DNA of 39,638 bases from Chitinophagales bacterium (GTDB lineage: Bacteria; Bacteroidota; Bacteroidia; Chitinophagales; JADIYW01), in the NCBI GenBank assembly GCA_019694955.1, contig JAIBAX010000045.1, positions 1 through 39,638 of the forward strand. The letters run 5' to 3'. A model generated the notes under the pieces. That model searched no databases. It saw nothing but the letters and a program-made list of their open reading frames with translations, and had not been told where the DNA came from. A program made the translations under genes and the position numbers. Below, in pieces: positions 22,409-36,938 of this stretch. The stretch's first letter is position 1. Every line of letters starts with the position of its first letter.

Positions 22409-22801
22409 TTATGCGGCTGCTTTTTGCATTTCGTTTTCGACATATTTAGAAGGGCATTTCATCAATATTTTCGATGCTTTGAACACCTCTCCTTCCATAT
22501 GTCCTGTTACGACAATTTTTTCGGAGCGTTCAATATCTCTTGGTTTTGCCCCTTTATACTCCACCATGCGTTGGTTACCTTTTTCATCAGCGATATAAAA
22601 AGAGAAATAATTTGGGTCTTTGAGCGGATTGTATTGCAGTGGTTTTTCCTTTACCAGTTTGCCGGCGACGACGATTTCGTTGCCTTTTTTTGCGGCTCTG
22701 GAGTTAAAATCCTCATACCTGCTAAAATTTCCCAACAGAGATACTAGCACGCCAATTAGCACCGCCACCATTACTAAAGCTAAGATATGTGTCTTCTTCA
22801 T
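22409..22801 (-). CDS. ccmE: CcmE-like heme chaperone, CxxxY variant
   Basis: CcmE takes heme from CcmC and passes it to CcmF at the periplasmic face. The 130-residue protein has an N-terminal anchor (ILALVMVAVLIGVLVSLLG), an OB-fold region with LVKEKPLQYNPLKDPNYFSF and YKGAKPRDIERSEKIVVTG, and at its end ILMKCPSKY. The heme-binding residue in enterobacterial CcmE is a histidine in an HxxxY motif; here it is cysteine C116 with Y120, the CxxxY variant described for archaea and some bacteria. I chose ATG 22801 over ATG 22816 because a -7-like box (complement of 22814-22821) would lie inside the longer gene and because MKKTH suits the anchor. It is followed immediately by ccmF. Confidence 0.9.
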   Translation of the reverse strand: MKKTHILALVMVAVLIGVLVSLLGNFSRYEDFNSRAAKKGNEIVVAGKLVKEKPLQYNPLKDPNYFSFYIADEKGNQRMVEYKGAKPRDIERSEKIVVTGHMEGEVFKASKILMKCPSKYVENEMQKAAA

Positions 22802-22813
22802 AAGATATGCTGG

Positions 22814-22821
22814 CAAAATTA
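22814..22821 (-). promoter_or_regulatory. Putative -7 box (TAATTTTG) of the ccmE-ccmF set
   Basis: The complement of 22814-22821 reads TAATTTTG, an exact TAnnTTTG match. It would start a transcript only a few nucleotides before ATG 22801, giving an almost leaderless message. No TTTG -33 element is found at the usual distance. Confidence 0.35.
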
Positions 22822-23040
22822 CGCTAAAATCACATATCGTTTATTAAACTAATTTTATTTAATCAATGGATACGTCATCAGGAAAAGGATGATGGGCATG
22901 CCCCCGTCCCTATCGGTTGGGGTCTTGTGTTCCGCTTGTACACGGTACCGCTGCACCCACTCATGCGGGCGGAGGTGGTTTATTCAATAGCATTGGAAAT
23001 AAATAAGTCGTTTATTCAGATCAATAGCGCATACTTCAAT
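22822..23040. other. Spacer with a GC-rich dispersed repeat
   Basis: No gene is seen. The part from about 22890 to 22976 is distinctly richer in G and C than its surroundings. It contains, in inverted orientation, the word shared with 16998-17019 (here 22931-22952). It marks the border between the ccm gene set and the AT-rich accessory island. Confidence 0.45.
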
Positions 23041-23274
23041 CTACCTTCGCTTTAATATGAACTCCGGCAGAATCCTTAATAGTTCAACTTTTAAAAATGA
23101 ACTAAGTTCAAGTTTTTCTTCCTTACTAAAACTATCTCCATAAAGATTGTAACCGTCTGCCATCCTTTCAATGTATTTCATATCATTACAGATACAGTAA
23201 TGAACATCCATCTTAAATACGCTACATTTAATTTGGTTGGTAAGTTTAAAACGATATCCCGCTTTCGTAATTTT
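23041..23274 (-). pseudogene. Out-of-frame coding continuation of the adjacent small secreted protein
   Basis: Read on the minus strand with a stop at 23041-23043, this stretch is open for 77 codons. It gives a protein-like sequence with FKLTNQIKCSVFKMDVHYC, DGYNLYGDSFSKEEKLEL and a natural-looking end LLRILPEFILKRR (written here in pieces). The frame is closed upstream by a TAG at 23275-23277. It overlaps the last codons of the gene ending at 23246, in a different frame. The simplest view is one gene of about 190 codons with a frameshift between 23248 and 23274. Alternatively it is a separate 56-codon gene from ATG 23211. Confidence 0.45.
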
Positions 23275-23614
23275 CTAATAAATTATCAATAATATTAGAG
23301 TATTTATCAATAACACTATCATAAGCAATTTTACCATTATATATAGCAACGGAATCCAAATAAGTTTTCCCATTACAACATTCAATTGTACCCCAATAAT
23401 TCCAAGAAGTATAATTTAAAATCTGTAGCTTGCTTATGGGAAGCGAATCAGCCATATAATAATAATACTTCTTTTTATAATGACTACCTGGATATTCTAT
23501 TTGAATAAGATAGGTGCTTTGACCAAGGCTCCAACCATAAAAGGTTATAATTATAAATAATGTCATTATATACCTTGGTAATAGTTCTTTCATTTTTTGT
23601 TTACATTTTACCAT
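23246..23614 (-). CDS. Small secreted hypothetical protein, probably truncated by a frameshift
   Basis: A hydrophobic signal (IMTLFIIITFYGWSLG) sits behind a basic start (MVKCKQKMKELLPR). The remaining 90 residues are rich in Tyr, Ser and Asn (PGSHYKKKYYYYMADS; CNGKTYLDSVAIYNGKIAYDS) and match no family I know. The reading frame ends at 23246, while the next frame stays open for another 70 codons, so the protein may be cut short. The real start is likely the ATG at 23593 (MKELLPRY) or the listed one. It is the last of a minus-strand run of small exported proteins, 20 nt downstream of the LRR lipoprotein. Confidence 0.6.
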   Translation of the reverse strand: MVKCKQKMKELLPRYIMTLFIIITFYGWSLGQSTYLIQIEYPGSHYKKKYYYYMADSLPISKLQILNYTSWNYWGTIECCNGKTYLDSVAIYNGKIAYDSVIDKYSNIIDNLLENYESGISF

Positions 23615-23634
23615 ACAATGTCAAATTCTTGCCT

Positions 23635-24375
23635 TCAAGGGTTGTAGAGATAGATAAATTTAATAAAAGATAAAGAATCCTTTAGTGTTGATTTATAGTC
23701 TTCAGTAAATTTATTCATTTCCAAATTTATTTGCTTTATGTTATGTAATTTAAAGACACATGGAGGGAGTTCTTTTAATTCATTTCCAATAAAACTTAAC
23801 ATAAATAGTTTCGGCAGGGTGCATATTGAATTCGGAATTTTGCTAATATTACAATATTCTACCGACAGAGATCCTAATTTTGAATAATTTAGACATTGAT
23901 TAAATAATAATTCCAAATTAATAGTTGGATTATATGATATGTCTATACTCTCTAAAGATTCCAAATCAATAAAAATTAAAGGTAATGTGTCTATGTTCGT
24001 ATTTATTAAGTTTACATGTCTTAGATTTTGGAGTGAAGCATTATTTGTCCATTTGATATTTGATAAATCTATGTCGCCAATGGTTAAACTATTCGGTTTT
24101 ACATAAATAATATCATCTAATATCTGAATTAGGCTATCTTTACCGATATTATAAATTCTCAATTCATTAAAATATATCTTTCTTTTAGCAATAAGTACTA
24201 TGTTCTTTTTAAAATTAGCTTGATCAATTATTAAAACAGGTCTAAAATACTCCTTGGCTGTTTTAGTCTTAATTCCCAACTTTTTAGTATTACATTGTAT
24301 CATAAATAATGAGAGCAATAGTAGTATAAATTTAATCCCAAAGGATGTTTTATGGATAAAAAAGGGATGACTCAT
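23635..24375 (-). CDS. Leucine-rich-repeat lipoprotein, paralogue 1
   Basis: The 246-residue protein has an N-terminal signal ending in a lipobox-like cysteine (FILLLLSLFMIQC). About six leucine-rich repeats follow from roughly residue 90 (for example LRHVNLINTNIDTLPLIF, LESIDISYNPTINL, LGSLSVEYCNISKIPNSI). LRR domains bind proteins; the partner is unknown. The gene immediately upstream at 24463-25173 encodes a close paralogue with the same ending KDSLSFxKFIYL, so the pair arose by tandem duplication. Base composition is very AT-rich compared with the ccm genes. The upstream sequence (24349-24449) recurs at 26121-26220 without an intact gene. An immunity-like role beside the RHS toxin is possible but unproven. 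Confidence 0.72.
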   Translation of the reverse strand: MSHPFFIHKTSFGIKFILLLLSLFMIQCNTKKLGIKTKTAKEYFRPVLIIDQANFKKNIVLIAKRKIYFNELRIYNIGKDSLIQILDDIIYVKPNSLTIGDIDLSNIKWTNNASLQNLRHVNLINTNIDTLPLIFIDLESLESIDISYNPTINLELLFNQCLNYSKLGSLSVEYCNISKIPNSICTLPKLFMLSFIGNELKELPPCVFKLHNIKQINLEMNKFTEDYKSTLKDSLSFIKFIYLYNP

Positions 24376-24449
24376 ATAATAAACTTTTGGTCGGGTATGA
24401 AAATACTTGTCATGATTGTTTGTAATGAGATGTGATCAATTTTGAATAT
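24349..24449. repeat. Repeat copy covering the 5' end of the LRR gene
   Basis: About 100 nt here (including AAACTTTTGGTCGGGTATGA and TTTTGAATATTTC) match 26121-26220 with scattered differences. The copy includes the first coding bases of the LRR gene and its upstream region. Confidence 0.7.
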
Positions 24450-24462
24450 TTCTGCAAAAACT

Positions 24463-25173
24463 TTAGAGGTAAATAAATTTTACAAAACTCAATGAATCCT
24501 TAATTACTTTTTTGTATTCATCTGAAAATTTATTTTGTTCAAAATGCACTTGCTTCAATGTCTTAATATTAAATATGTAATTCGGTAATTCTGTAAAATA
24601 ATTGTCATTTAATCCTAAAATAAAAATGTTTTTAAAGTCACATATTGACTGTGGAATCTCAGTAAGATTATTATCTTCTAAATACAAAGCTCCTAGTTTA
24701 TCTGCATTTAATTGCTTAAATATAATGTCTAAATTAATAGCAGGATTTCTTGAAATTACTAACTCATCCAATTTTTCTAAATTTTGAAAAATATAAGGTA
24801 ATGTATCTATATTATTTTTAATTAATGTTAGGTCTCGAAGATTAATTACTGAAGTTTTGTCAAAATAGTTTAAATTTGATAAGTTTACATTGTAAATATA
24901 TAATGAATTGATATTTACATATCCAATTTTATCTAAAATTTGCACTAAACTATCTGTACCAATACTATGAATTCTTAGTTCTTTAAAATAAATACTTTTT
25001 GTATTAAAAAGAGAAAGATACTTTTTGAAATTATCCTTTTCAATAACAATTATTGGTTTAACATTCTCTTGGTTTGAAATTGCTTTCTTTTGTTGACTAC
25101 AATTGATTGTAAATACCAATGCTAACACAAATATTAACAATTTTAAACAAACAGGATAATCTCTGCCTTGCAT
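24463..25173 (-). CDS. Leucine-rich-repeat lipoprotein, paralogue 2
   Basis: The 236-residue protein has an N-terminal signal with a possible lipobox cysteine (LLIFVLALVFTINC), a Lys/Gln-rich linker and leucine-rich repeats such as LRDLTLIKNNIDTLPYIF, LDELVISRNPAINLDIIF, LGALYLEDNNLTEIPQSI and IFILGLNDNYFTELPNYI. Clear colinear similarity to the product of 23635-24375 runs along its whole length, including FKELRIHSIGTDSLVQIL near residue 70. Both are likely surface or periplasmic lipoproteins. No enzymatic domain is seen. The gap to the downstream paralogue is 87 nt. The function is unknown. Confidence 0.72.
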   Translation of the reverse strand: MQGRDYPVCLKLLIFVLALVFTINCSQQKKAISNQENVKPIIVIEKDNFKKYLSLFNTKSIYFKELRIHSIGTDSLVQILDKIGYVNINSLYIYNVNLSNLNYFDKTSVINLRDLTLIKNNIDTLPYIFQNLEKLDELVISRNPAINLDIIFKQLNADKLGALYLEDNNLTEIPQSICDFKNIFILGLNDNYFTELPNYIFNIKTLKQVHFEQNKFSDEYKKVIKDSLSFVKFIYL

Positions 25174-25261
25174 AGTCTATTCTGGTTTTGTCTTTGCTTT
25201 TAAATCAAAAAATAAATCCATTCTTGTTTTTACAGTTACCATCTTACATTTACACATAAAA

Positions 25262-25951
25262 CTAATATTTTTCAATAATTAAGCCTTCTGGTTCAATAAT
25301 TTTACAAACACCATCCTCACATTTTAATGTATACCATATCCTTTTTATTGCGTAGTAACGTGCATACACCCCATCTTTAGGAACACCATTCTCATAAATC
25401 ATATATTCAATTGGAATGCCATCTCTATCATAATATGCTGAAAATCCATCTAATTCACCTTCCTTATAGTGGGAAATCCATCTAATTCCATCTCTAACTG
25501 TTGAATAAGCCAAACCCTCTTTTAAACCATTACGATAATGTATAAAAATAAAAGAACTATCGAATCCCTCAATTTTAGTTATTCCATTTTTTTTCCCATT
25601 CTTATAGGCACTTTCAGATACCAATTCCATATTACTTTTAGCATAATATTCATAAAATAAAAAATTTCCTTCAGGTATTCCATCTCTATTGAATGTGCCT
25701 TTCTGGATTAGTCTATCCGAAGCGAGGAGTCTCCACTCAACTGTATCATAGTTCATACCTTTTTTTGTAATAGTATAACCCTCAGCAAGATTTACAGAAT
25801 CTTCTGAAATTGATGCAATTAAAGAATCTTTATTTGTATAAACATAGTTATAAAAGTAATGAAAGAGTCCATCATCGGGTTTTTTATGAACTTCTTGCCC
25901 TGTTACAGAATAAAATGTTGATAAGCAAATCAAAAATACCAATGCTTTCAT
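25262..25951 (-). CDS. Secreted MORN/YwqK-like repeat protein
   Basis: A cleavable signal peptide (MKALVFLICLSTFYSVTGQ) starts this 229-residue protein. The body consists of repeated units of the form YKNGKKNGITKIEGF, YRNGLKEGLAYS, YKEGELDGFSAYYDRDG and YENGVPKDGVYARYY, the toxin-antitoxin YwqK / MORN-like pattern common in Bacteroidota. In Bacillus the name-giving YwqK is the antidote of a polymorphic toxin, so this type of protein is a reasonable candidate for an orphan immunity factor in an RHS island; that role is inference. The gene lies on the same strand as the RHS gene and its downstream genes. Confidence 0.7.
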   Translation of the reverse strand: MKALVFLICLSTFYSVTGQEVHKKPDDGLFHYFYNYVYTNKDSLIASISEDSVNLAEGYTITKKGMNYDTVEWRLLASDRLIQKGTFNRDGIPEGNFLFYEYYAKSNMELVSESAYKNGKKNGITKIEGFDSSFIFIHYRNGLKEGLAYSTVRDGIRWISHYKEGELDGFSAYYDRDGIPIEYMIYENGVPKDGVYARYYAIKRIWYTLKCEDGVCKIIEPEGLIIEKY

Positions 25952-26120
25952 ATTGTAAAACTAGTAAACCAATTATTTTTTTAAAACTTCATCAACAACT
26001 TTAATAGCCCTAAATTTTGCATGGTCAATGGCTTCAGTCCAAAGGCTAATCTAATGCATTCATATATAAATATTCTTAGCTAAGATAGTATTTTTTTCAG
26101 TAGATTACAAGTGGTAGGAT

Positions 26121-26220
26121 TTTTATGGATTGAAAAGAAATAGCATGATAAACTTTTGGTCGGGTACGAAAAACTTATCATCATTGTGGGTGCTGAGATC
26201 TAATAAACTTTTGAATATTT
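26121..26220. repeat. Second copy of the LRR-gene 5' region
   Basis: The sequence follows 24349-24449 almost word for word (TTTTATGGAT, AAACTTTTGGTCGGGTACGA, TTTTGAATATTTC) but is not followed by an intact LRR reading frame on the minus strand. It looks like the scar of a deleted or recombined paralogue. Confidence 0.65.
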
Positions 26221-26225
26221 CAAGG

Positions 26226-26467
26226 GGCATCTTGCTGTTGCTGTTGTTACGTCATCTTATCGAGTTCGCAGGTCATATGAAAGAATGTATCCCCTCAAAA
26301 TATTCTTGTTGTTACGTCATCTTATCGAGTTCGCAGAGTTTCACTTGCTCTGCTGTCAACTCCTCCTCACATATCGTTCCAGGGTCTGCATAAGGACCAT
26401 CCTCATCTATCCAGATTATATTTGGTAAGTTCACCTTTTGGTCGTTGCAACTTCCCAACCAGTCTCC
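26226..26467 (-). pseudogene. Displaced fragment of the RHS core gene
   Basis: Positions 26329-26467 match 31595-31733, inside the large RHS gene, with about 5 differences in 139 nt. The encoded segment (GDWLGSCNDQ, NLPNIIWIDEDGP, EEELTAEQVKLCEL) is nearly the same as residues 1736-1781 of the RHS protein. The part from 26226 to 26271 corresponds to the next RHS bases (around the poly-Gln codons). The fragment also holds a partial repetition of itself: TTGTTACGTCATCTTATCGA (26245 on) recurs at 26310. It has no usable start, so it is a relic. Confidence 0.8.
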
Positions 26468-26559
26468 GAGACTACACAAGGTAAAGTATAGCATAATAGC
26501 TATGTTTCCTCTTTATTTTCACTCGATACAAATTTATGCACTTTTTTTACTTTTTTATT

Positions 26560-26629
26560 TGGTTTTTATGATAGTACCTTGCATCATTGTTAGTTCTAAG
26601 CTATAATAAACTTTAGAACAGTTCAGGGA
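26560..26629. repeat. Hairpin repeat, copy A1
   Basis: This copy reads TTTTTATGATAGTACCTTGC, then GTTCTAAG (26593) and CTTTAGAACAGTTCAGGG. It is related to copies at 27085-27156 and 27765-27894, with a slightly imperfect stem. Confidence 0.65.
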
Positions 26630-26642
26630 AAATTAGCTATAC

Positions 26643-26702
26643 GGGGATTGCAAATCCCCAACGTCCACACTTCGACATGCGCTTTCGCTGAACATGTCGA
26701 AG
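26643..26702. repeat. Two adjacent REP-like hairpins
   Basis: GGGGATT-GCA-AATCCCC (26643-26659) is a perfect 7-bp stem. CTTCGACATG (26670-26679) pairs perfectly with CATGTCGAAG (26693-26702), with a smaller GCG/CGC stem in its loop. Sequences of this sort are scattered palindromes in many Bacteroidota genomes. They lie between copy A1 and the XRE gene and could end or insulate transcription. Confidence 0.7.
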
Positions 26703-26746
26703 AGCAGTGGGTATAAATCTTTATTTAGCATAACTTTTTAACACTT

Positions 26747-27079
26747 ATGAGTTTTGGTAAACGTTTAACAGATGCCCGAAAAAAGAAGGGTTTAAGCCAA
26801 GAAGATGTTGCTTTGGCTCTCGGAACTAAAGCTCCAGTTATTGGACGTTATGAACGTGATGAAATGAAGCCTTCTATTGAAGCTGCTGCTAAAATTGCGG
26901 ATGTATTGGAGGTATCGCTTGATTGGATTGTTGGTAATACAGATGCAGAACTTGATAAAGATACGCTTAAAAGAATTTTAGAATTGCAAAAATTACCCAA
27001 GGATATCAGAGAAAAATTATACTACTTCATTGATATGTCTATCAGAGATTTTAAAGCTAAACAGGCTTATGCATCTTAA
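26747..27079 (+). CDS. XRE-family transcriptional regulator
   Basis: The 110-residue protein has a Cro/C1-type helix-turn-helix at about residues 4-62: RLTDARKKKGLSQEDVALAL is followed by the recognition helix region KAPVIGRYERDEMKPS and the domain end AKIADVLEVSLDWIVGN. A short C-terminal helix follows, probably for dimer formation. Such regulators often control mobile elements or toxin modules. It is the only plus-strand gene in the island and is bracketed by hairpin repeats. Its last codons and the following 60 nt are part of the repeat that recurs, decayed, near 27755. The target is unknown; its neighbours do not fix it. Confidence 0.85.
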   Translation: MSFGKRLTDARKKKGLSQEDVALALGTKAPVIGRYERDEMKPSIEAAAKIADVLEVSLDWIVGNTDAELDKDTLKRILELQKLPKDIREKLYYFIDMSIRDFKAKQAYAS

Positions 27080-27084
27080 CAGTA

Positions 27085-27156
27085 TTTGTGTACGCAAGTT
27101 ATAAACTTGCCTCATCGTTAGTTCTAAGTTATAATAAACTTAGAACAGTTCAGGGG
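27085..27156. repeat. Hairpin repeat, copy A2 (two perfect stems)
   Basis: GCAAGTT-ATA-AACTTGC (27094-27110) and GTTCTAAGTT-ATAATA-AACTTAGAAC (27121-27146) are perfect stems of 7 and 10 bp, followed by AGTTCAGGGG. The copy starts within a few bases of the XRE stop codon and ends where the transposase remnant begins. Confidence 0.8.
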
Positions 27157-27515
27157 AAGTAATCTCCTGGATTGAACGGATTAAAGCACCGCCGTGTGTT
27201 AAAAAAATAACCGCTAAAACTACTCCTTTCCCTTATTCAAACTCCATGATTGAAGAAACTTTCAATCTCTTTAAACATGGCTACCTAAAAGGGGACACTC
27301 CTTTTTCCGCTAAAGACTGTCATAAAAAAGTTGAAGACTTCGCCCATCACAATAATAATCGGTACTTCTGTGAATTATTCGGTATTACTCCTAATCAAGT
27401 CCTTAAAGGACAGCCTCCCGATAAACATAAATTTAAATATCAAATAAGCAAAGCTGCTAGCCAACGAAGAATTGCAAATCAATCTTTCGCTCTTTGTACT
27501 ATTGATAATTGTTAA
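27147..27515 (+). pseudogene. 3' remnant of a DDE transposase/integrase (IS3/IS481-like)
   Basis: The frame is open from an in-frame stop at 27141 (inside copy A2) to 27515. It encodes WIERIKAPPCVKKITAKT and PYSNSMIEETFNLFKHGYL, where the MIE glutamate fits the last acidic residue of a DDE integrase core. HHNNNRYFCELFGITPNQVL is the end motif typical of these transposases. The N-terminal DNA-binding part and the first two aspartates are missing, so the gene is a relic; the ATG at 27246 is only incidental. The 5' break is exactly at the end of hairpin repeat A2, suggesting that repeat insertion or recombination there removed the rest. Terminal inverted repeats are not recognised. Confidence 0.7.
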
Positions 27516-27764
27516 CAAAATAAACCCATTTATACCCATCTCTTCTGTAAAAAATTACCAAATACCTTTGGCATACCATTAACAACACTTTTGTCGTCCT
27601 TTTCTTTTACTCCTCATCCTCAAAAACATCAATCCGCTTTCTTCCATTCTCTTATGTTCTACAAAATCACCGAAAAATACCATTTTATTCACCTTGTTCA
27701 ATTATTCGTACGCTTTAGTTTGGTTTTACTTAGACAGCGCTGCAAGCTTACACCTCTTAACAGC
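27516..27764. other. T/C-rich spacer after the transposase remnant
   Basis: No gene is supported on either strand. The plus strand is rich in pyrimidine runs. The last bases (CTTACACCTCTTAACAG) resemble the end of the XRE gene (CTTATGCATCTTAACAG at 27067 on), pointing to an earlier duplication of that gene end. Confidence 0.4.
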
Positions 27765-27894
27765 ATTTGTGTACGCAAGTTATAAACTTGCATCATTGTT
27801 AGTGCTAAGTTATAAGAAACTTAGAACAGTTCAGGATAAAAACTTAGAACAGTTCAGGGGTTTTTATGATAGTACCTTAGAACAGTTCAGGGGA
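27755..27894. repeat. Hairpin repeat, copy A3 with two extra terminal units
   Basis: The copy repeats A2 closely (GTGTACGCAAGTTATAAAC, then CTAAGTTATAAGAAACTTAG) and is followed by two more AACTTAGAACAGTTCAGG-type units at about 27841-27860 and 27875-27893, separated by TTTTTATGATAGTACC, a word otherwise found in A1. The last unit runs into the stop codon of the 190-residue gene. Confidence 0.75.
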
Positions 27895-28459
27895 CTATAG
27901 TCAAACTCTTTAGTTTTATTTTTTTTGATCCTATTAAAGGGGTCTTAATAAGTCCAATTGTAAGTTCTATTTTATCAATTTTACTTACTTCTAAACTATC
28001 AAAGTTTAGTCTAAGGTCATCTAATATTAAATCACTAATAAAATTTAACTCAAGGTATTTATTGTTTATAGTTGCCCTACCAAATTTATCTGTATGAAGA
28101 TATTCCTTATGATTACCATCATATGCTTCAAACCAAAAATTTGATAAAGTATCGCCCATTGTACTCTTAAGCATTATTTTATAATTGCTATCTTCTGAAC
28201 CAATGCTATCATATACAAATATTATACTATGATTTTCGAACCTTGTACTGCTATTAAAGTCAATTATAATATTTTTCTTACCAATAGTATATGTACCAAA
28301 ACAATAATTATGCAACAATCCATACCTCCAGTCAACTGAGACTATTGAATCTTCATAAAAAATATAATTATAACCATTCGAATCAATATAATTCTTGCCA
28401 AATTCAATGTCATTATTTGTTGTAAATGCAAGTAAAATTGATAAAAAAAGTAATTTCAT
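27887..28459 (-). CDS. Secreted hypothetical protein next to the RHS tip; candidate immunity protein
   Basis: The 190-residue protein has a short signal peptide (MKLLFLSILLAFTTN) and an acidic, beta-rich body (IYFDSNGYNYIFYEDS-like strands; KIDKIELTIGLIKTPLIG near the end). No family is recognised. It begins 7 nt after the stop of the RHS gene, on the same strand, the position that immunity genes take behind RHS toxins. An exported immunity protein would suit a toxin acting in the periplasm or at the cell surface. Its composition is AT-rich like the RHS tip. The stop codon lies inside the last hairpin-repeat unit (TTCAGGGG), so the original C-terminus may have been altered by the repeat. Immunity function is inference. 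Confidence 0.65.
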   Translation of the reverse strand: MKLLFLSILLAFTTNNDIEFGKNYIDSNGYNYIFYEDSIVSVDWRYGLLHNYCFGTYTIGKKNIIIDFNSSTRFENHSIIFVYDSIGSEDSNYKIMLKSTMGDTLSNFWFEAYDGNHKEYLHTDKFGRATINNKYLELNFISDLILDDLRLNFDSLEVSKIDKIELTIGLIKTPLIGSKKIKLKSLTIVP

Positions 28460-28466
28460 AAATATC

Positions 28467-31400
28467 TTAACCAGTTATCAACATTAACAATCTTTCTTCA
28501 ATAAAATATCCTCTATCAATTTCACCCATATAAGTGTCTTTTTCCCAACCGTTATATCTATAAACTTTGTTATTGTGAATATCGTATAGTGAATTTTGAT
28601 ATAGTATTAATTTTGAAAAAATTACAGATAATTGACTCCCTTTTTGTTGCAAATTACTATAGTTCACGCCCATTTCATAAACAAATTTTGCATCTGTTGG
28701 TGTTCCAAATTTATTAGTCCCTTCAAATAATTTTTGCCTACCATAAGCCTCTTGTTCATCATAAACATCATATGCGAATCCTCCTCCTGTTTGTGTTGAA
28801 CTCTGTCCATATGTTGCTACAATATCTAATTCAAGTATCTCATATTGATATGCATGCTTTAACTCATGTGCAAGATAGTTTATGCCACTTTTATAATTGA
28901 CTTCTACTCTCTCTTTGTCTAGATTATATCCTAGATTACCAGTGATACTTGTTTTGGAGTATGTAACACCAGAGTTAATATAATATAAAACACTAGAGGT
29001 TTCTAAGCTATTAAATTCATTTTTGACTTGTTCCCATGCTTGAAGTTGCTTTTTTAGATTATCTATTTTTTTGTCCTTACCCTTATTACTTAAAGCATTA
29101 ATTTTTTCACCTAATTTCTGAATCTTACTATTAGCTTTTTGTTTCGCTTTATTATAATCTTCTAAACCTTTTTTATCACCATCAACTACATCACCATTAA
29201 TATCAGTAAAATATATTGGATTATTAGTCATACAGGTATATCCCCCATGCCAAGGATAAGTAACAGGGTCAACATTCCACCTTCTTCCCAATCTTGCATC
29301 ATATTCCCAGAACATGGCGGTATTGATATTGCCGTCTGCATTTATTTCAAAATCTCTTTCCTGTCCGTTAAATCCTCTTGAATATGAAGTAGTTGCGGTG
29401 TATGTTCTATACGCTAGTTGCATCCCAAATGGGTCATAATCACTAGCCGACAAAACAACCGCTTCATAAGTTAAATCAGTGCCATTAGAAATGATTGATT
29501 TATAATCAGATACGGTAGTGAGGACGTTACCGAGGTGGTTGGATAATTCGTAGCTACGAAGTCCTATAATACGCTCATATTCATTCGGAGTAGTCGGTGG
29601 TAAAACGTCCAACACATCTTCTGTATAAACACCTAATCTACTACTGCCATAAATGGCAAATTCTCTGCTTCCTTTTATGTTGTTGGTTACCGTTGCTAAA
29701 ATCTCTTCTGTCATCAGCACATTGCCTTGAGCATCCCTAAAATATAACGTAGTTTTTTCAACTAATCCGGTACTTCCATTTTTGACAATTTTGGCGATTC
29801 TGTTGCCCATTGCATCATACTGGAAGTCCAAATCACTCTTTGTATCAAAATTAATGGACTTTATTTTACCATAAACATCCCAAACAATCTCATCAATATC
29901 TTCGGCATCATCTCTTATCAAATTACCAATCTCGTCATACCCATAATTACCTGTTCCTTGGTCTTCTATATCTTTATCAAAATTACTTGAATTTGTACCA
30001 TTTATCGCATCATCCACATAATTCAAACGATTATTAACCAATTTGCCGTTCGCATCTTGGGTGTAATGATATTCCAAATCATCCATCGCTAATGCAGTAG
30101 ATTGTATCGTCGCATTTATACCACTACGTGTCAATTCGGTGATATTACCATTCGGGTCGTACGCATAACTCATGCCTACTGTTGGAACTACCGTAAATGC
30201 GTCATTCGCTCCCGGTCCAAGACGATTTCCTGTACATGTCCTGATTCTATTCAATTGGTCATACTCGTATTCGTTAAAGTTATATGCTGTATAAATACCA
30301 GGACCTGTATTACTTGACCTAAAATGACGTAAATATGTACCCATAAAGGCAATATTGCCATTAAATAATCCCTTATCTCCATTGACATCATTACCGGATG
30401 TATTGTAAAACGGCGTAATGCCTGAAATACTAAACGGCTCTATAAATGACTGATCTATACCATTATAATCTCCTTGGTAATAACCTAAATAAAACGACAT
30501 TTCATCCTGCGCTACAAAATTATCCAAACCTGTTACTCCATCTTGCGATGCTGTCGGGTCTATATAATTTGTTCCCTTCAACCAACCCTGCAGTGTGTAA
30601 ACATAGTCCACACCCTGCACTTTCCCATCGCCCAACTCTACCCGTGCCAACGGTCCGTGGGGATAGTAAAAATACTTCGCATCCCTGCTTTCAAATCTGC
30701 CGTCTCTGGAGGTATATACATCCGTAATCCTATTGTCCGCATCGTACTCATATCGGTGGCTGTACTGGTCTATCGCTCCCTTCTGGAAGGTAACCTTGTT
30801 CACCTTGCCACTCTGCAAGTCGTACTCGTACCTTACTTGTTTGACATATACCTCATTGTTCACTACCAATTTCTGTACAAGCACATTCACATTGCCCAAT
30901 TCATCATAGCTGTATATTGTAGCATTGCCGCTGTTGGCAATCATGGCTGCATTGTCTTCATATCTATATACTGCAGATACCCTGTTGCGCAGGTAGCGTT
31001 GTTGTACGCCTGTCTCTACAACTTTTAGGTCATATATCGTCTGGGTGATATCGTGGGCAGCTGCCATCAGGTTATTATCTTCTACAAAATTAGCATTTTC
31101 TACCAATGTTGCAAGAGTTGCTATGTTAATATTTTCTAATTCGCCCACCATCGATATCCTACCCAATGCATCGTATTTTGTAAACGAGTAGTCAGATTCG
31201 TTGGTATTTTCTACCACAGCCTGTTTTGCATTCTGCGATAGCATCAACTGTCCCTTGCTGTTGTACCAAAAATTCGTTTCTCCGGCGTCCGGTGTTTGCT
31301 GCTCCACCACTTGGTTGCGGGTATTATAAGCGTATCTTGTGTTAAGCACGTGGTCGGGTTCATCGGTGCCATTCCATTTCCCTTGGCTATTAAAGGAAAT

Positions 31401-34400
31401 GCTTGCTAATGGCGTTACGCCTGATGGTGGTATCGTTTGCGCTAAATTGCCCGCAATATCGTAATAGTACAACGTATAATGTCCTTCCTTTTTATTATAA
31501 CTATAGCTAAAAGATTCTTGTGTATTCAAACAATGTGCTTGATAATAATGCAATAAGGCATCTTGCTGTTGCTGCTGATACGTCGTACTATTGAGTTCGC
31601 AGAGTTTCACTTGCTCTGCTGTCAACTCCTCTTCACATATCGTTCCAGGGTCTGTAAAAGGGCCATCCTCATCTATCCAGATTATATTTGGTAAGTTCAC
31701 CGTTTGGTCGTTGCAACTTCCCAACCAGTCTCCACAGGGTGCATTATTGGCGGAAATAGAGAAAATAATGGGGTACACCCGCACCTGCTGACCATTGGTT
31801 TTGGTGGCCATGTACGACATCACCGCACTTTGTGCCATCACCGGATAAAAACCTGTACCCGTACCTATCACAAACGGTAGCGGCGACGGTGTCTCCAATG
31901 GCGATGATAGATTCTCTATGCTCGTAACCTTGGTTCCGGATGCATCCACAAAAATAATCGTATTAAAACAACATGTGGATGCAGTTTGTATAGTTGACGG
32001 CGTAATGTTCAATTGTGTAATATCAGCTATTGCTGTTGGGAGTTCTATCAATTCTATTGGTCCACCACCCAAGGGAAGGTCTTCCTCCGGTTGTGGATAG
32101 CTGATATCAAAACCATGCCCGTTAGCAAAATTTACTAATTCTTGAAAGCGTGGCTGCGTACAATAGTGCACTGTCAAGGGGGTACCATTGATTTGTAGCT
32201 GTGTCTGCGTAATAGCCAATGGTGTAGAAAGGGCGGCTACCGCACACGGAATATCGGGGTCATTATTAGTGTTATATGTGTTTAAAAATGTTTGCCATTC
32301 TGTACTGTTCATCACACCAAAGATATTGTCGAAGCCCGTGCAATGGCTTTCTATCTCCTCTGTCAATGCTGCAATGAATGTATTTCTTTCTGCCTCGCTA
32401 AAACTAGATAAATCCGGGCATAAGTTTTCCATCTGTGCCCATGTGAACTCCGCCTGATAGGCAGCAGCTTGCTGGCAATTGCTGATTACTTCGTCCACCT
32501 GCTGACCCTGCGAAGTTGTACCAAAGTCTATTTGTGGATATACCGCATAATCTTCGGTAATATAGGGGCAATCTTCTTTGTCCTGCTCCATGAATTTCGC
32601 CTTTAATCCCAAATACAACGATACATAGCGCAGGTACCTGTATTCTTCGGCACTCACACCTACGGGCAAATCGCTGGTTTTAACCCTAAAATCCGGTAGT
32701 AGTTCTTGTCCTTGCTCGTAATTCGATGCAGTAATGTCCCACAGGGTTTGTGCACCAGAGATCTCCTCAAACACATCCGTAGTAGCATTTTTCTTATATA
32801 CCGGATAATCGTTCAACATATCCGCCAAATCTTCGTTTTCGTAGGGGTCTTTGTCCTGAAATGGCCATAGATTATTGGATGACGCTACCGCTTGACTGTT
32901 CACATGAGAAATCTTGAAGTCGAAGATTTTTGAATCCCGATTTTCCCAACACTCAAACTTATAATGACAGTATTCTGCATGGTGTTTCACAAAATAGTAT
33001 TTTACCTGCTCCCAATGTTCATACACCCAATCCTCATAAAAATTATTATAGGGTGATATTTCCGGTACATCCCCCCAATCCCCACCTTCGAATACCAAAT
33101 CATCCTCATCATATATATACGGACCAAATAAGAGATCTCTACATCCCTCTAGCCATGTTTCATTATTATAATATTGTGCCAATAAATCCGCCTCTGCATC
33201 CGGACCGATTTGACTGAGCAACATTTCATACTTTGCATCGCACTCCGACTGTACCTCCGATGCTGCGTTCGCTACCAAACCGCCTTCAACATCGCAATGG
33301 GATTGGATATAGGCTTCTATCGTTGGGTTCTTTGGAGAATTTGCATAATTTGCATAATTTGGCTCAATATTGTTATTGGGGTCATTGTCATTGTTTACCT
33401 CGTCCCGATAAAGATAATACGCTATTTGCTCGCACTCCGTAGCACATATCGATGGATCCGGTGTAGGAACACTCTGGCAGTTCTGCTCGTTCACATTCAA
33501 GTTATTGGCGGTGTACCATCCTTCCAATATCGTATTATCTGGTGGTATCACCGTTAGGGCTTTTATCACTCGGTAATTGCCCACTTCATCAAACGTCGCC
33601 TCAAACTCTACCGCTCCATATCCTTTATAACTCGGTGTCCCATCTAGCGGACTGGTCGTACACGCTTCCCCAAAATCACCCAAATCCGCACTCAATATAT
33701 AATCACTTATACTTACCGTCATCTGTGGTGTCGGTTGTGTACTCGTCAGCGTCATGTCCACCAATTCTCCTCGTTGGTTGTATATCTTGATATCTAGATG
33801 GTATTTACATTCTTTACAAAAAGCAGTGGCGCCCGGTGGCAAAACACCGCTGTGGAACTCTGCTATTGCTCCATCCAAATCATAGGTAAACGTATAATCT
33901 GTGTTCGGGGTGGTGTTCAGTATCTCGTGGTCAATCACCAGCGACCTGCCGTCTATGCCTATTTTGTTCTTTGTGGAAAGGTCTTCGGTAACGTTGGTTT
34001 CTGCTATCTCCGGTGCATTATCGTTCAAACCGTCCTGAAGTTCGTGCAGGTTGTTGGGGTTGTCTCCCGCTAATGCCGTCATAATCGTCTTACCTGCCAT
34101 GTTTTGGATGCTCACCGATACCTGTCCGTTTGGATCTACCGCCATCACCTTGCTGTAATATTGTGCCTCACCAACATTTGAACCAAACAACCTGTTCAAC
34201 TCCGTCTGAGTTGGCTGACCGTAGTAGTAACGTGAGTAGTGGCTGTTTGCAGGGTTCTCATCAAATCTAAACATTTCTCCGATGCCGCTCTGTGCCGATA
34301 CCCTGCCCGAATTATCCGGCATATAGCGCACCAGTGTGCTGATATATCCACCCGCATCCGGTACTAAACCCATATTCGCATAGTATTTGTCCGGATTGAG

Positions 34401-36938
34401 GAGAAATTCGTTGTTCGAAGAATAATATTGTTGCGTCAACCCTGCCGAAATACTAGGTTGTGTTGACACACCGTCAAAGTCTTCCGCTTCCGGTGCTACA
34501 TTACTACCGCCTCTGTCCACCAATGTCAATCCTGATTTGTACAACAGGTTATTGTCGCCAAATAATGGTACCGGTAGCACGTTGAACACCGAGCGACCTT
34601 CTTGGTCGTAGTACGACTCTCCCGCTAGGGTCAACCCTTCCGTGTTCAGGTTCGTAACCACCTGTATCGGGCGCATCAAATCGTCGGCGTAGGTGATGAC
34701 TTCTTTTTTCTTGCCGTCTTCGGCAAAGGTAATCGTCTTCTGCCAGTGGTATTCCGGCTCAAAAGGTAGTGCCTCTGTGCCGTCTATCGCTATGCTTTCT
34801 TCATCACTCCATTTGCCAACATAGCGGTGTGTATAGTTCGTTTCAAACGCGCTATTATGTCTCCCGATGGGGCGTACCTTGTAGTATAACGTTCCCTCCG
34901 GGTAGGTTAGGTCGAAGGTATAGTAATTATCCGATGTCGTCACCGTCCACAACAAGCGGTCGGCGGTAGTATTGTCTGCATACTTGTCTTTATAGCCTAT
35001 TTCCAACTCGTACTCATATGCCGATGCTACTATCGGCCAGTGGATGGTCGCTTTGCGGTCGGTAGGGTCGATGGTGGCACTTAAATTACTCACATCTATC
35101 ATGTCGTCAGCTCTGCTGAAAGCTGGCACGTATTCTATCGACAACTCTGCTTCAAATTTTATCGCCTCATACAGTACCGCTCTGTCGCCGATGGTATGGT
35201 TGAGGCGGATATCGGTAACCGTCACCAATGCACCTGATAGTTGCTCAGAGGGCTGATTGGAAAAAACCCGAATGCTGTTATCGAAGATATGACCGTTGTC
35301 GTCGTTGCGGATGCTCAGTGTTCCTTGCTCTGAAGCGTCATTATTCGGATCAATCGTCCCATCGTTGTCGCTGTCGATATGTACCGTATAGTCTATCTCT
35401 GCTGTCCAGCCATTGTCTGTACTCGAAAAGTTTGATGGCGGCAGTGATACATCTAAGGCACTGTTGCGGTAAGATAGGTTCATGTACAAACGGTAGTGTA
35501 CTACATCTTCCGATTTATATTGTACTGCTTGCGGCGCATCTTCCATCGCTCGTGGATCCGCAATCAGAAAACGAAGGTTATCACCCGGAGCATCCTCATC
35601 ATAATCTTCGTCTTCTAAGTCATTCTCCATCTGACTCAACGATTGACCTACATACAGGCTATTGCCATTGAAATCATCGTTGCAGCGTTTGTCTATGTCT
35701 ATCGAAGCACTTGTTTGGCAACCGCCATTGCTCACACCCGACACTGTATATACACCCGGAGCGGTGATGCCTGTACGCAGTGCACCCGTCGTTGTCGTTC
35801 CCATATCTGACCAGATGTAGCTGCCATTCGTGACTCCACCTAATACCCGTATGCTAACCGCTCCCTTGCACAAATCATTCGCACCATTATCATAAACAAT
35901 CCGCAGATTTGACGATTTTACATCAACATCCACACTCGCTGTCGTTTTACATCCCTGACTATAGGCTGTCAACACATAATGCCCCTCCTGATGGGTTACC
36001 AAATTCTCTGAACAGGAGTAATCATGACCGTCTTTCTGCCAATGAAACTGTGTGAACGGAACAGATGGAGAGGGTGAATATTCAGGTGATACTGTAACCG
36101 TTGTACCACTACATATTTCTATAGAATTGTCAATAAAACTTATTGTCGGTAATGTAACCGAATTCACCTCAAAATTATTCGAGAGTGTCGGACAAACACC
36201 ATAACGGTCACCACTGATGCGGTAGGTGCCACTCGACGGAAAAATTACCGTATTGGTAAATGGGCTTCCGCTAACCGTTTGCCAAGTGCTACCATTTTGT
36301 TTTTCCAATGTGAGCGGTGTATTCAAAAAGCCTTCCGGTAGCGTATAGCTGGCTGTTCCGTTTGCCAAATCGTAATCACAAAAGGTCAGAGGGGGAATAT
36401 CTAATACATTACAGCCCATGTCGGTATACTTATAGGCAATATCTAGCCAGTAACGTGGGTTGACTTTTCCATCATCATCATATGCTTCGATGGTAGAAAA
36501 TTGCTCTATGTTCGAGAAATGATACACTTTTGTCTTTACGGCATACTGTCCGCCTTTGCGCCATCCTTCTAGGGTAACCCATACGCTGATATTTGGTAGA
36601 TTGGCATTGCTGACACAATGTTTTACGGATATCTCTTGGTTCTCACAAGCGCCATCGGAATTGCAGTTAAGTATTTGTTCATGAAATTTCGTCCCTCCTT
36701 CAAAAAAAGAATAGGTTATCTTCCAAGTACGATGATCTCCCTCCGGACGTATGTCGAGGTTGCGAACGCTAAATTCAAATGTCTTTAGCTGTTGTGCTTG
36801 GGTATTAAAAATAAAACAAACACACAATAAACTCATCAATAAAATTGACCTTACGTAGACAGCATGAAGGTAATCTGAATAAACAATCTTAAAAAAAGAA
36901 CATTCTCGGAACACTTTAAAATTCATTTTGGGTTGCAT
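28467..36938 (-). CDS. Giant RHS-repeat protein with C-terminal HExxH metallopeptidase tip
   Basis: The 2823-residue protein has an N-terminal signal (RSILLMSLLCVCFIFNTQAQ, residues about 31-50). Ig-like modules lie at about 180-440 and a fibronectin-III-like segment at about 610-715. Next comes the DUF6443-like region around YHWQKTITFAEDGKKKEVIT (about 730). RHS/YD repeats run from about 1825 (YYDIAGNLAQTIPPSG) to 2380 (YDAMGNRIAKIV). The core ends with EYDARLGRRWNVDPVTYPW (about 2545) and NNPIYFTDINGD. The last 250 residues form a separate tip: a Lys-rich coiled-coil-like linker, then YLAHELKHAYQYE with H2691, E2692 and H2695, and DEQEAYGRQ giving E2730 as a possible third zinc ligand. RHS proteins encapsulate and deliver toxic tips; a protease tip of the NleD/M91 kind is plausible. 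DNA of the tip (28467 to about 29230) is much more AT-rich than the core. Confidence 0.88.
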   Translation of the reverse strand: MQPKMNFKVFRECSFFKIVYSDYLHAVYVRSILLMSLLCVCFIFNTQAQQLKTFEFSVRNLDIRPEGDHRTWKITYSFFEGGTKFHEQILNCNSDGACENQEISVKHCVSNANLPNISVWVTLEGWRKGGQYAVKTKVYHFSNIEQFSTIEAYDDDGKVNPRYWLDIAYKYTDMGCNVLDIPPLTFCDYDLANGTASYTLPEGFLNTPLTLEKQNGSTWQTVSGSPFTNTVIFPSSGTYRISGDRYGVCPTLSNNFEVNSVTLPTISFIDNSIEICSGTTVTVSPEYSPSPSVPFTQFHWQKDGHDYSCSENLVTHQEGHYVLTAYSQGCKTTASVDVDVKSSNLRIVYDNGANDLCKGAVSIRVLGGVTNGSYIWSDMGTTTTGALRTGITAPGVYTVSGVSNGGCQTSASIDIDKRCNDDFNGNSLYVGQSLSQMENDLEDEDYDEDAPGDNLRFLIADPRAMEDAPQAVQYKSEDVVHYRLYMNLSYRNSALDVSLPPSNFSSTDNGWTAEIDYTVHIDSDNDGTIDPNNDASEQGTLSIRNDDNGHIFDNSIRVFSNQPSEQLSGALVTVTDIRLNHTIGDRAVLYEAIKFEAELSIEYVPAFSRADDMIDVSNLSATIDPTDRKATIHWPIVASAYEYELEIGYKDKYADNTTADRLLWTVTTSDNYYTFDLTYPEGTLYYKVRPIGRHNSAFETNYTHRYVGKWSDEESIAIDGTEALPFEPEYHWQKTITFAEDGKKKEVITYADDLMRPIQVVTNLNTEGLTLAGESYYDQEGRSVFNVLPVPLFGDNNLLYKSGLTLVDRGGSNVAPEAEDFDGVSTQPSISAGLTQQYYSSNNEFLLNPDKYYANMGLVPDAGGYISTLVRYMPDNSGRVSAQSGIGEMFRFDENPANSHYSRYYYGQPTQTELNRLFGSNVGEAQYYSKVMAVDPNGQVSVSIQNMAGKTIMTALAGDNPNNLHELQDGLNDNAPEIAETNVTEDLSTKNKIGIDGRSLVIDHEILNTTPNTDYTFTYDLDGAIAEFHSGVLPPGATAFCKECKYHLDIKIYNQRGELVDMTLTSTQPTPQMTVSISDYILSADLGDFGEACTTSPLDGTPSYKGYGAVEFEATFDEVGNYRVIKALTVIPPDNTILEGWYTANNLNVNEQNCQSVPTPDPSICATECEQIAYYLYRDEVNNDNDPNNNIEPNYANYANSPKNPTIEAYIQSHCDVEGGLVANAASEVQSECDAKYEMLLSQIGPDAEADLLAQYYNNETWLEGCRDLLFGPYIYDEDDLVFEGGDWGDVPEISPYNNFYEDWVYEHWEQVKYYFVKHHAEYCHYKFECWENRDSKIFDFKISHVNSQAVASSNNLWPFQDKDPYENEDLADMLNDYPVYKKNATTDVFEEISGAQTLWDITASNYEQGQELLPDFRVKTSDLPVGVSAEEYRYLRYVSLYLGLKAKFMEQDKEDCPYITEDYAVYPQIDFGTTSQGQQVDEVISNCQQAAAYQAEFTWAQMENLCPDLSSFSEAERNTFIAALTEEIESHCTGFDNIFGVMNSTEWQTFLNTYNTNNDPDIPCAVAALSTPLAITQTQLQINGTPLTVHYCTQPRFQELVNFANGHGFDISYPQPEEDLPLGGGPIELIELPTAIADITQLNITPSTIQTASTCCFNTIIFVDASGTKVTSIENLSSPLETPSPLPFVIGTGTGFYPVMAQSAVMSYMATKTNGQQVRVYPIIFSISANNAPCGDWLGSCNDQTVNLPNIIWIDEDGPFTDPGTICEEELTAEQVKLCELNSTTYQQQQQDALLHYYQAHCLNTQESFSYSYNKKEGHYTLYYYDIAGNLAQTIPPSGVTPLASISFNSQGKWNGTDEPDHVLNTRYAYNTRNQVVEQQTPDAGETNFWYNSKGQLMLSQNAKQAVVENTNESDYSFTKYDALGRISMVGELENINIATLATLVENANFVEDNNLMAAAHDITQTIYDLKVVETGVQQRYLRNRVSAVYRYEDNAAMIANSGNATIYSYDELGNVNVLVQKLVVNNEVYVKQVRYEYDLQSGKVNKVTFQKGAIDQYSHRYEYDADNRITDVYTSRDGRFESRDAKYFYYPHGPLARVELGDGKVQGVDYVYTLQGWLKGTNYIDPTASQDGVTGLDNFVAQDEMSFYLGYYQGDYNGIDQSFIEPFSISGITPFYNTSGNDVNGDKGLFNGNIAFMGTYLRHFRSSNTGPGIYTAYNFNEYEYDQLNRIRTCTGNRLGPGANDAFTVVPTVGMSYAYDPNGNITELTRSGINATIQSTALAMDDLEYHYTQDANGKLVNNRLNYVDDAINGTNSSNFDKDIEDQGTGNYGYDEIGNLIRDDAEDIDEIVWDVYGKIKSINFDTKSDLDFQYDAMGNRIAKIVKNGSTGLVEKTTLYFRDAQGNVLMTEEILATVTNNIKGSREFAIYGSSRLGVYTEDVLDVLPPTTPNEYERIIGLRSYELSNHLGNVLTTVSDYKSIISNGTDLTYEAVVLSASDYDPFGMQLAYRTYTATTSYSRGFNGQERDFEINADGNINTAMFWEYDARLGRRWNVDPVTYPWHGGYTCMTNNPIYFTDINGDVVDGDKKGLEDYNKAKQKANSKIQKLGEKINALSNKGKDKKIDNLKKQLQAWEQVKNEFNSLETSSVLYYINSGVTYSKTSITGNLGYNLDKERVEVNYKSGINYLAHELKHAYQYEILELDIVATYGQSSTQTGGGFAYDVYDEQEAYGRQKLFEGTNKFGTPTDAKFVYEMGVNYSNLQQKGSQLSVIFSKLILYQNSLYDIHNNKVYRYNGWEKDTYMGEIDRGYFIEERLLMLITG

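What the first reader, a model, noticed from the sequence alone, without database searches (positions are those of the whole stretch)
26226..26467. Relic of the RHS core 5 kb from its source
139 nt at 26329-26467 match 31595-31733 with about 5 differences, and the frame is preserved over about 46 codons. It shows that RHS genes have recombined in this locus: either an earlier RHS copy was deleted or a core segment was inserted during tip exchange. High identity implies a recent event or gene conversion.
Basis: seen in the sequence. Interest (0 to 1): 0.55.

Follow-up and report, generated by a model that had tools for sequence, protein, structure and literature searches.

The report
Decayed leftover of an RHS gene
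A 242-base scrap of the neighbouring RHS toxin-carrier gene survives between repeat sequences downstream of it; it is most likely non-working debris from the reshuffling that such genes commonly undergo, and so is ordinary.

Summary
Window 26226-26467 is a second, same-orientation copy of 31557-31733, inside the RHS gene at 28467-36938 (-). It matches at 166 of 177 positions once a 65-nt local duplication is set aside. It is the only other copy in the 4.1-Mb genome. The genome's two other RHS genes are about 47-49% identical in protein over their best stretches and have no nucleotide match to it.

The interpretation needs two corrections. First, the copied stretch (residues 1736-1794) lies just before the conserved YD-repeat shell and about 1,030 residues before the stop. 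It is therefore neither 'core' in the strict sense nor next to the tip. Second, it carries no tip, has a stop codon in frame, and changes as unconstrained DNA would.

In related bacteria, same-strand leftovers downstream of RHS genes are common: 22 of 55 loci, against 2 of 55 on the opposite strand. None of those 52 segments comes from the stretch before the shell. The relic abuts other repeats exactly on both sides.

Best reading: a non-functional remnant of RHS displacement or local duplication, trimmed by deletion in a repeat-rich graveyard. It is a new example of a known kind.

The parts
26226..26467 (-). RHS gene relic, same orientation as the RHS gene; corresponds to 31557-31733 (residues 1736-1794)
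   Evidence: blastn and direct comparison, 166/177 after setting aside a 65-nt local duplication; only other copy in the genome
26242..26336 (.). local rearrangement inside the relic: 30-nt exact direct repeat (26242-26271, 26307-26336) around a 35-nt insert (26272-26306) found nowhere else in the genome
31557..31733 (-). source stretch inside the intact RHS gene, just before the conserved YD-type shell
28467..36938 (-). intact RHS-type polymorphic toxin gene, 2823 aa; tip carries an HELKH (HExxH) motif near residue 2691
   Evidence: RHS_repeat and DUF6443 only below Pfam cut-off
27887..28459 (-). 190-aa ORF directly after the RHS gene, probable immunity gene by position
   Evidence: no Pfam or NCBIfam family at the limits used
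26116..26225 (-). repeat element copy D, abutting the relic's downstream edge; related to 24342-24452, which overlaps the start of an LRR gene
26468..26580 (-). repeat segment abutting the relic's upstream edge exactly; 104/115 identical to C6:105839-105953
26578..26631 (.). repeat element copy C (palindromic family shared with 27062-27156 and 27743-27893)

Best explanation
The fragment is a non-functional relic. At some time a second copy of at least part of this locus's RHS gene lay downstream of the intact gene in the same orientation, as happens when an RHS gene is displaced or recombines with a circular or duplicated copy of itself. Later deletions, probably between the short repeats that litter this stretch, removed everything but 177 nt. 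A further small rearrangement (65 nt: 30 duplicated, 35 inserted) then broke it up. Shown: the duplication, its orientation, its single nearest source, the frame break, the repeat-bounded edges, and that same-strand RHS leftovers are common in relatives. Inferred: that the copy was once longer, that deletion trimmed it, and the order of events.
For: 166/177 match to the window's RHS gene and no other genome copy. Paralogs are too distant in this stretch to be donors. The in-frame TAA and the change spectrum (3 synonymous, 6 non-synonymous, 1 stop codon) are close to random expectation, 94:357:26. 22 of 55 related RHS loci have same-strand nucleotide leftovers downstream, against 2 of 55 opposite-strand, among them broken or internal ones (L113, L086, L119). 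Both edges abut repeats: 26225/26226 with element D, 26467/26468 with a segment also on C6. The surroundings hold an HTH-gene tail duplicate, a transposase-like remnant and LRR gene duplicates. C-terminal displacement leaving core fragments downstream is described for enterobacterial rhs (PMC2935791, passages; PMC3967940, passages).
Against: No trace of the rest of a displaced copy (shell, tip) was found between 22000 and 28466, so a longer ancestor is not shown. The relic's source, before the shell, is unlike every one of the 52 relic segments seen in relatives. No relative with the same locus was found, so order and polarity are untested.
Confidence: 0.62

Rival explanations
1. A short segment was copied once, directly from the RHS gene into the repeat-rich stretch, by template switching or repair with filler DNA, without any longer RHS copy ever being there.
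For: Only 177 nt are present and nothing else of the gene is nearby. The edges show short shared letters and a small palindrome (AGTCTCCGAGACT at 26461-26473, read). The 35-nt insert and 30-nt duplication look like a template-switch product.
Against: Both edges coincide with the ends of repeats, which deletion or recombination explains at least as well. Longer leftovers are common in relatives.
Confidence: 0.28
2. It is a silent donor segment kept for gene conversion or recombination with the intact RHS gene.
For: 161 nt of direct repeat with identical runs of 39, 39 and 31 nt, long enough to recombine by general knowledge (runs).
Against: Recombination between the two would delete the shell, the tip and the probable immunity gene; the segment is not variable-tip sequence; it has a stop and a rearrangement.
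Confidence: 0.03
3. It acts as RNA or a small peptide: an antisense RNA against RHS mRNA if read from the + strand, or the 60-aa ORF 26312-26494 (-) that fuses nine new residues to the relic frame.
For: 161 nt of near-perfect complementarity to the RHS mRNA if transcribed on +; a 60-aa ORF exists.
Against: Promoter-like sites are no more frequent than in shuffles (9 against 11.0); no Rfam match; no sign of coding constraint.
Confidence: 0.04
4. A template/variable repeat pair of a diversity-generating retroelement.
For: Two near-identical segments of about 140-180 nt, one inside a gene.
Against: Differences are not confined to one base: in gene orientation the relic has A at 5 of 11 differing sites. 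The gene copy lies in the middle of the gene. No reverse transcriptase was seen among the proteins scanned, which covered only this part of the window.
Confidence: 0.01

Closest known systems
Dissociated rhs core/tip fragments from C-terminal displacement (Enterobacteriaceae; PMC2935791, passages read)
   Same: A fragment of the same gene lies downstream of the intact gene, on the same strand, nearest to the local gene.
   Different: Those fragments carry core sequence running into a variable tip; this one comes from before the shell, is cut on both sides and has no tip.
Orphan rhs-CT/rhsI module of Salmonella Typhimurium LT2 (PMC3967940, passages read)
   Same: Downstream fragment sharing high identity with the main gene (there 95% over 522 bp).
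   Different: No toxin-tip reading frame follows here, and fusion by recombination would remove, not supply, a tip.
Polymorphic toxin loci with strings of former immunity genes (PMC3482391, passages read)
   Same: Small secreted or lipoprotein-like ORFs (190, 229, 236, 246 and 122 aa) follow the RHS gene, two of them paralogous LRR proteins.
   Different: None of the five was matched to a named immunity family.

Membership tests
Displaced (dissociated) rhs fragment | Sequence of the local rhs gene's own lineage, downstream, same orientation | tested here: met
Displaced (dissociated) rhs fragment | Core fragment that runs to the core/tip junction | tested here: not met
   relic ends about 1,030 residues before the stop; no other RHS similarity in 22000-28466
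Displaced (dissociated) rhs fragment | Same arrangement in related loci | tested here: met
   22 of 55 loci have same-strand leftovers, 2 of 55 opposite-strand; but 0 of 52 segments come from before the shell
Functional orphan rhs-CT/immunity module | Open frame for a variable toxin tip after the core fragment | tested here: not met
   frame stops at codon 1787 and relic DNA ends at 26226 against element D
Functional orphan rhs-CT/immunity module | Linked immunity gene | tested here: inconclusive
   a 229-aa ORF starts about 275 nt further on, with a repeat element between; no family
Diversity-generating retroelement repeat pair | Differences at template adenines only | tested here: not met
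   relic>gene differences: G>A 3, T>C 2, A>T 2, A>G 2, A>C 1, G>T 1
Dispersed mobile repeat (MITE or REP-like) | Several copies in the genome | tested here: not met
   2 matches in 4.1 Mb: the relic itself and the gene; the flanking segments do recur

The most novel reading that the evidence does not exclude
The repeats that bound the relic on both sides are cassette borders: a short palindromic element family (copies at 24342-24452, 26116-26225, 26578-26631, 27062-27156, 27743-27893) that sits at or near gene ends and at the relic's edge and gives RHS tip/immunity cassettes a shared downstream arm for exchange. The relic would then be an emptied cassette. In at least three related loci (L069, L082, L102) repeats outside the RHS gene likewise end within a few bases of some RHS leftovers, which fits, though plain co-duplication explains it as well.
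Probability: 0.1. Interest if true: 0.45.

Novelty: new member of a known kind. Interest (0 to 1): 0.18.

Why it matters
It is a small scar of RHS locus turnover in a bacterium whose window also encodes a SprB-repeat protein with a CHU_C type IX secretion signal. Together with the survey of 55 related loci it shows that downstream RHS leftovers, described in enterobacteria in the papers read, are common in this order too. The scrap itself has no likely function.

Tried and rejected
Other RHS genes as donor: C103 and C85 encode paralogs, but their DNA does not match the relic and their protein does not align well there. Close relatives for polarity: of 99 genomes searched (own genome included) 7 had a match, and the 6 others had only 28-36-nt chance-like matches; the genome-contig scan gave 8 pattern hits and no relative; the plasmid collection had no match. 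Faint remains of a larger RHS copy: none in 22000-28466 beyond the relic. Regulatory RNA: no Rfam match, promoter-like sites at shuffle level. DGR: mutation pattern wrong. I first took the palindromic element to be confined to this locus (5 of 5 pattern matches in C28), but a 57-nt stretch of it also occurs on C37 at 91% and more weakly on C49, so I dropped that claim; notebook entry 1 still words it the old way. The transposase-like label of 27156-27515 rests on my reading; no Pfam family was found, and the one plasmid match (37.6%, Leptospira) lies in an unannotated stretch.

Survey limits: 60 loci in 43 genomes were chosen by me from the match list, favouring high scores and long contigs; 5 of 60 were dropped from the count for having under 1 kb downstream. 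In a few (L102, L118-L121) the main ORF taken was itself short. The source region examined starts about 1,000 codons before the shell (longer genes are cut there).

Full report
What is there. The 2823-residue RHS-type gene runs on the minus strand from 36938 to 28467. Downstream of it, at 26226-26467, lies a second copy of part of it in the same orientation. 26307-26467 matches 31573-31733 at 150 of 161 bases, and 26226-26271 matches 31557-31602 at 87%. The two pieces overlap in the gene because 30 nt are exactly repeated inside the relic (26242-26271 and 26307-26336) around a 35-nt insert that has no other match in the genome. Setting that aside, the copy is colinear with 31557-31733 over 177 nt with 11 differences.

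Which part of the gene. The copied stretch is residues 1736-1794. Similarity to the genome's other two RHS genes becomes strong only from about residue 1800, where the YD-type motifs begin; before that the paralogs align poorly. I call the conserved part from residue 1800 the shell; that border is mine. The relic ends about 1,030 residues before the stop codon. It is therefore neither strict core nor next to the tip, which carries an HExxH motif near residue 2691.

Source. A search of the whole genome (4,135,380 bases, 103 contigs) with the relic found 2 matches, itself and the window's gene. The RHS genes on C103 and C85 are about 49% and 47% identical in protein over their best stretches. 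The C85 gene runs to its contig end, so a missing copy cannot be wholly excluded.

State. The relic frame is open for 51 codons and then has TAA in place of codon 1787. Ten codons differ: 3 synonymous, 6 non-synonymous, 1 stop. Random single changes in the same codons would give 94:357:26. Six of eleven differences fall within 18 nt (p about 0.007 under random placement), and both copies of the 30-nt repeat share that cluster, so the small duplication came after those changes or in the same event. Divergence of 6.2% is similar to that of other repeats nearby, for example 27062-27154 against 27743-27835 at 90%. 'Recent' is therefore not a safe inference.

Edges. On its downstream side the relic meets repeat element D at 26225/26226. 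Element D is 79% identical to 24342-24452, which overlaps the start of an LRR gene, and is related to three other copies at 26578-26631, 27062-27156 and 27743-27893 (0 of 500 shuffles reached the score in each of the six pair comparisons made). On its upstream side, from 26468 exactly, begins a 113-nt segment 90% identical to C6:105839-105953. Beyond lie a dispersed repeat (26639-26711; 25 of the 35 genome matches fall in it by my count of that table), an HTH gene whose tail is duplicated at 27743, and a transposase-like remnant found once in the genome. This is a patchwork of short repeats and broken genes.

Is it usual? 69 of 298 genomes of the order encode a protein matching the shell at E up to 1e-40. 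I fetched 60 RHS loci from 43 of these genomes. 55 had at least 1 kb downstream. Of these, 22 have same-strand nucleotide leftovers of their own RHS gene downstream, and 2 have opposite-strand ones. 39 of the 52 segments end within 350 codons of the gene's stop, and 47 of 52 within 600. None starts before the shell. Broken internal leftovers occur: L113 (814 nt, frame-broken), L086 (163 nt) and L119 (40 nt). The window's relic thus belongs to a common phenomenon but comes from an unusual part of the gene.

Mechanism. Jackson and colleagues (author names recalled) propose for enterobacterial rhs that displaced tips attached to core fragments of variable length gather downstream through recombination with circular intermediates (PMC2935791, passages). 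Koskiniemi and colleagues give evidence of recombination between a main rhs gene and a downstream orphan fragment sharing 95% over 522 bp (PMC3967940, passages). The 2012 survey of polymorphic toxins reads strings of immunity genes as leftovers of such events (PMC3482391, passages). The window fits as a decayed product: a downstream RHS copy, trimmed to 177 nt, bounded by repeats and then rearranged. That a longer copy existed is inferred; no other RHS trace was found in 22000-28466. A direct short copy by template switching is the main rival. A role as recombination donor, antisense RNA, peptide or retroelement template is unlikely.

Verdict. Ordinary; low interest.

Noticed in passing
24342-24452, 26116-26225, 26578-26631, 27062-27156, 27743-27893: Five copies of a palindromic repeat family lie between the small genes downstream of the RHS gene; a 57-nt stretch of it also occurs on contig C37.
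   Followed up: partly
26639-26711: A dispersed repeat (ACGGGGATTGCAAATCCCC...) with many copies across the genome, including a small array on C103 near 101950-102166.
   Followed up: partly
23635-24375 and 24463-25173: Two paralogous LRR proteins, 46% identical in protein, with N-termini that look like secretion or lipoprotein signals, in a probable string of former immunity genes.
   Followed up: no
L028 1-9585 with L027 (C103 RHS gene): An RHS paralog in a 4,754-codon open frame, with about 3.9 kb between the shell match and the RHS-associated terminal match.
   Followed up: no
L082, L069, L102: Related RHS loci with three to six truncated RHS copies in a row, some preceded directly by repeats outside the RHS gene.
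   Followed up: partly
27156-27515: Transposase-like remnant found once in the genome, with no Pfam family.
   Followed up: partly
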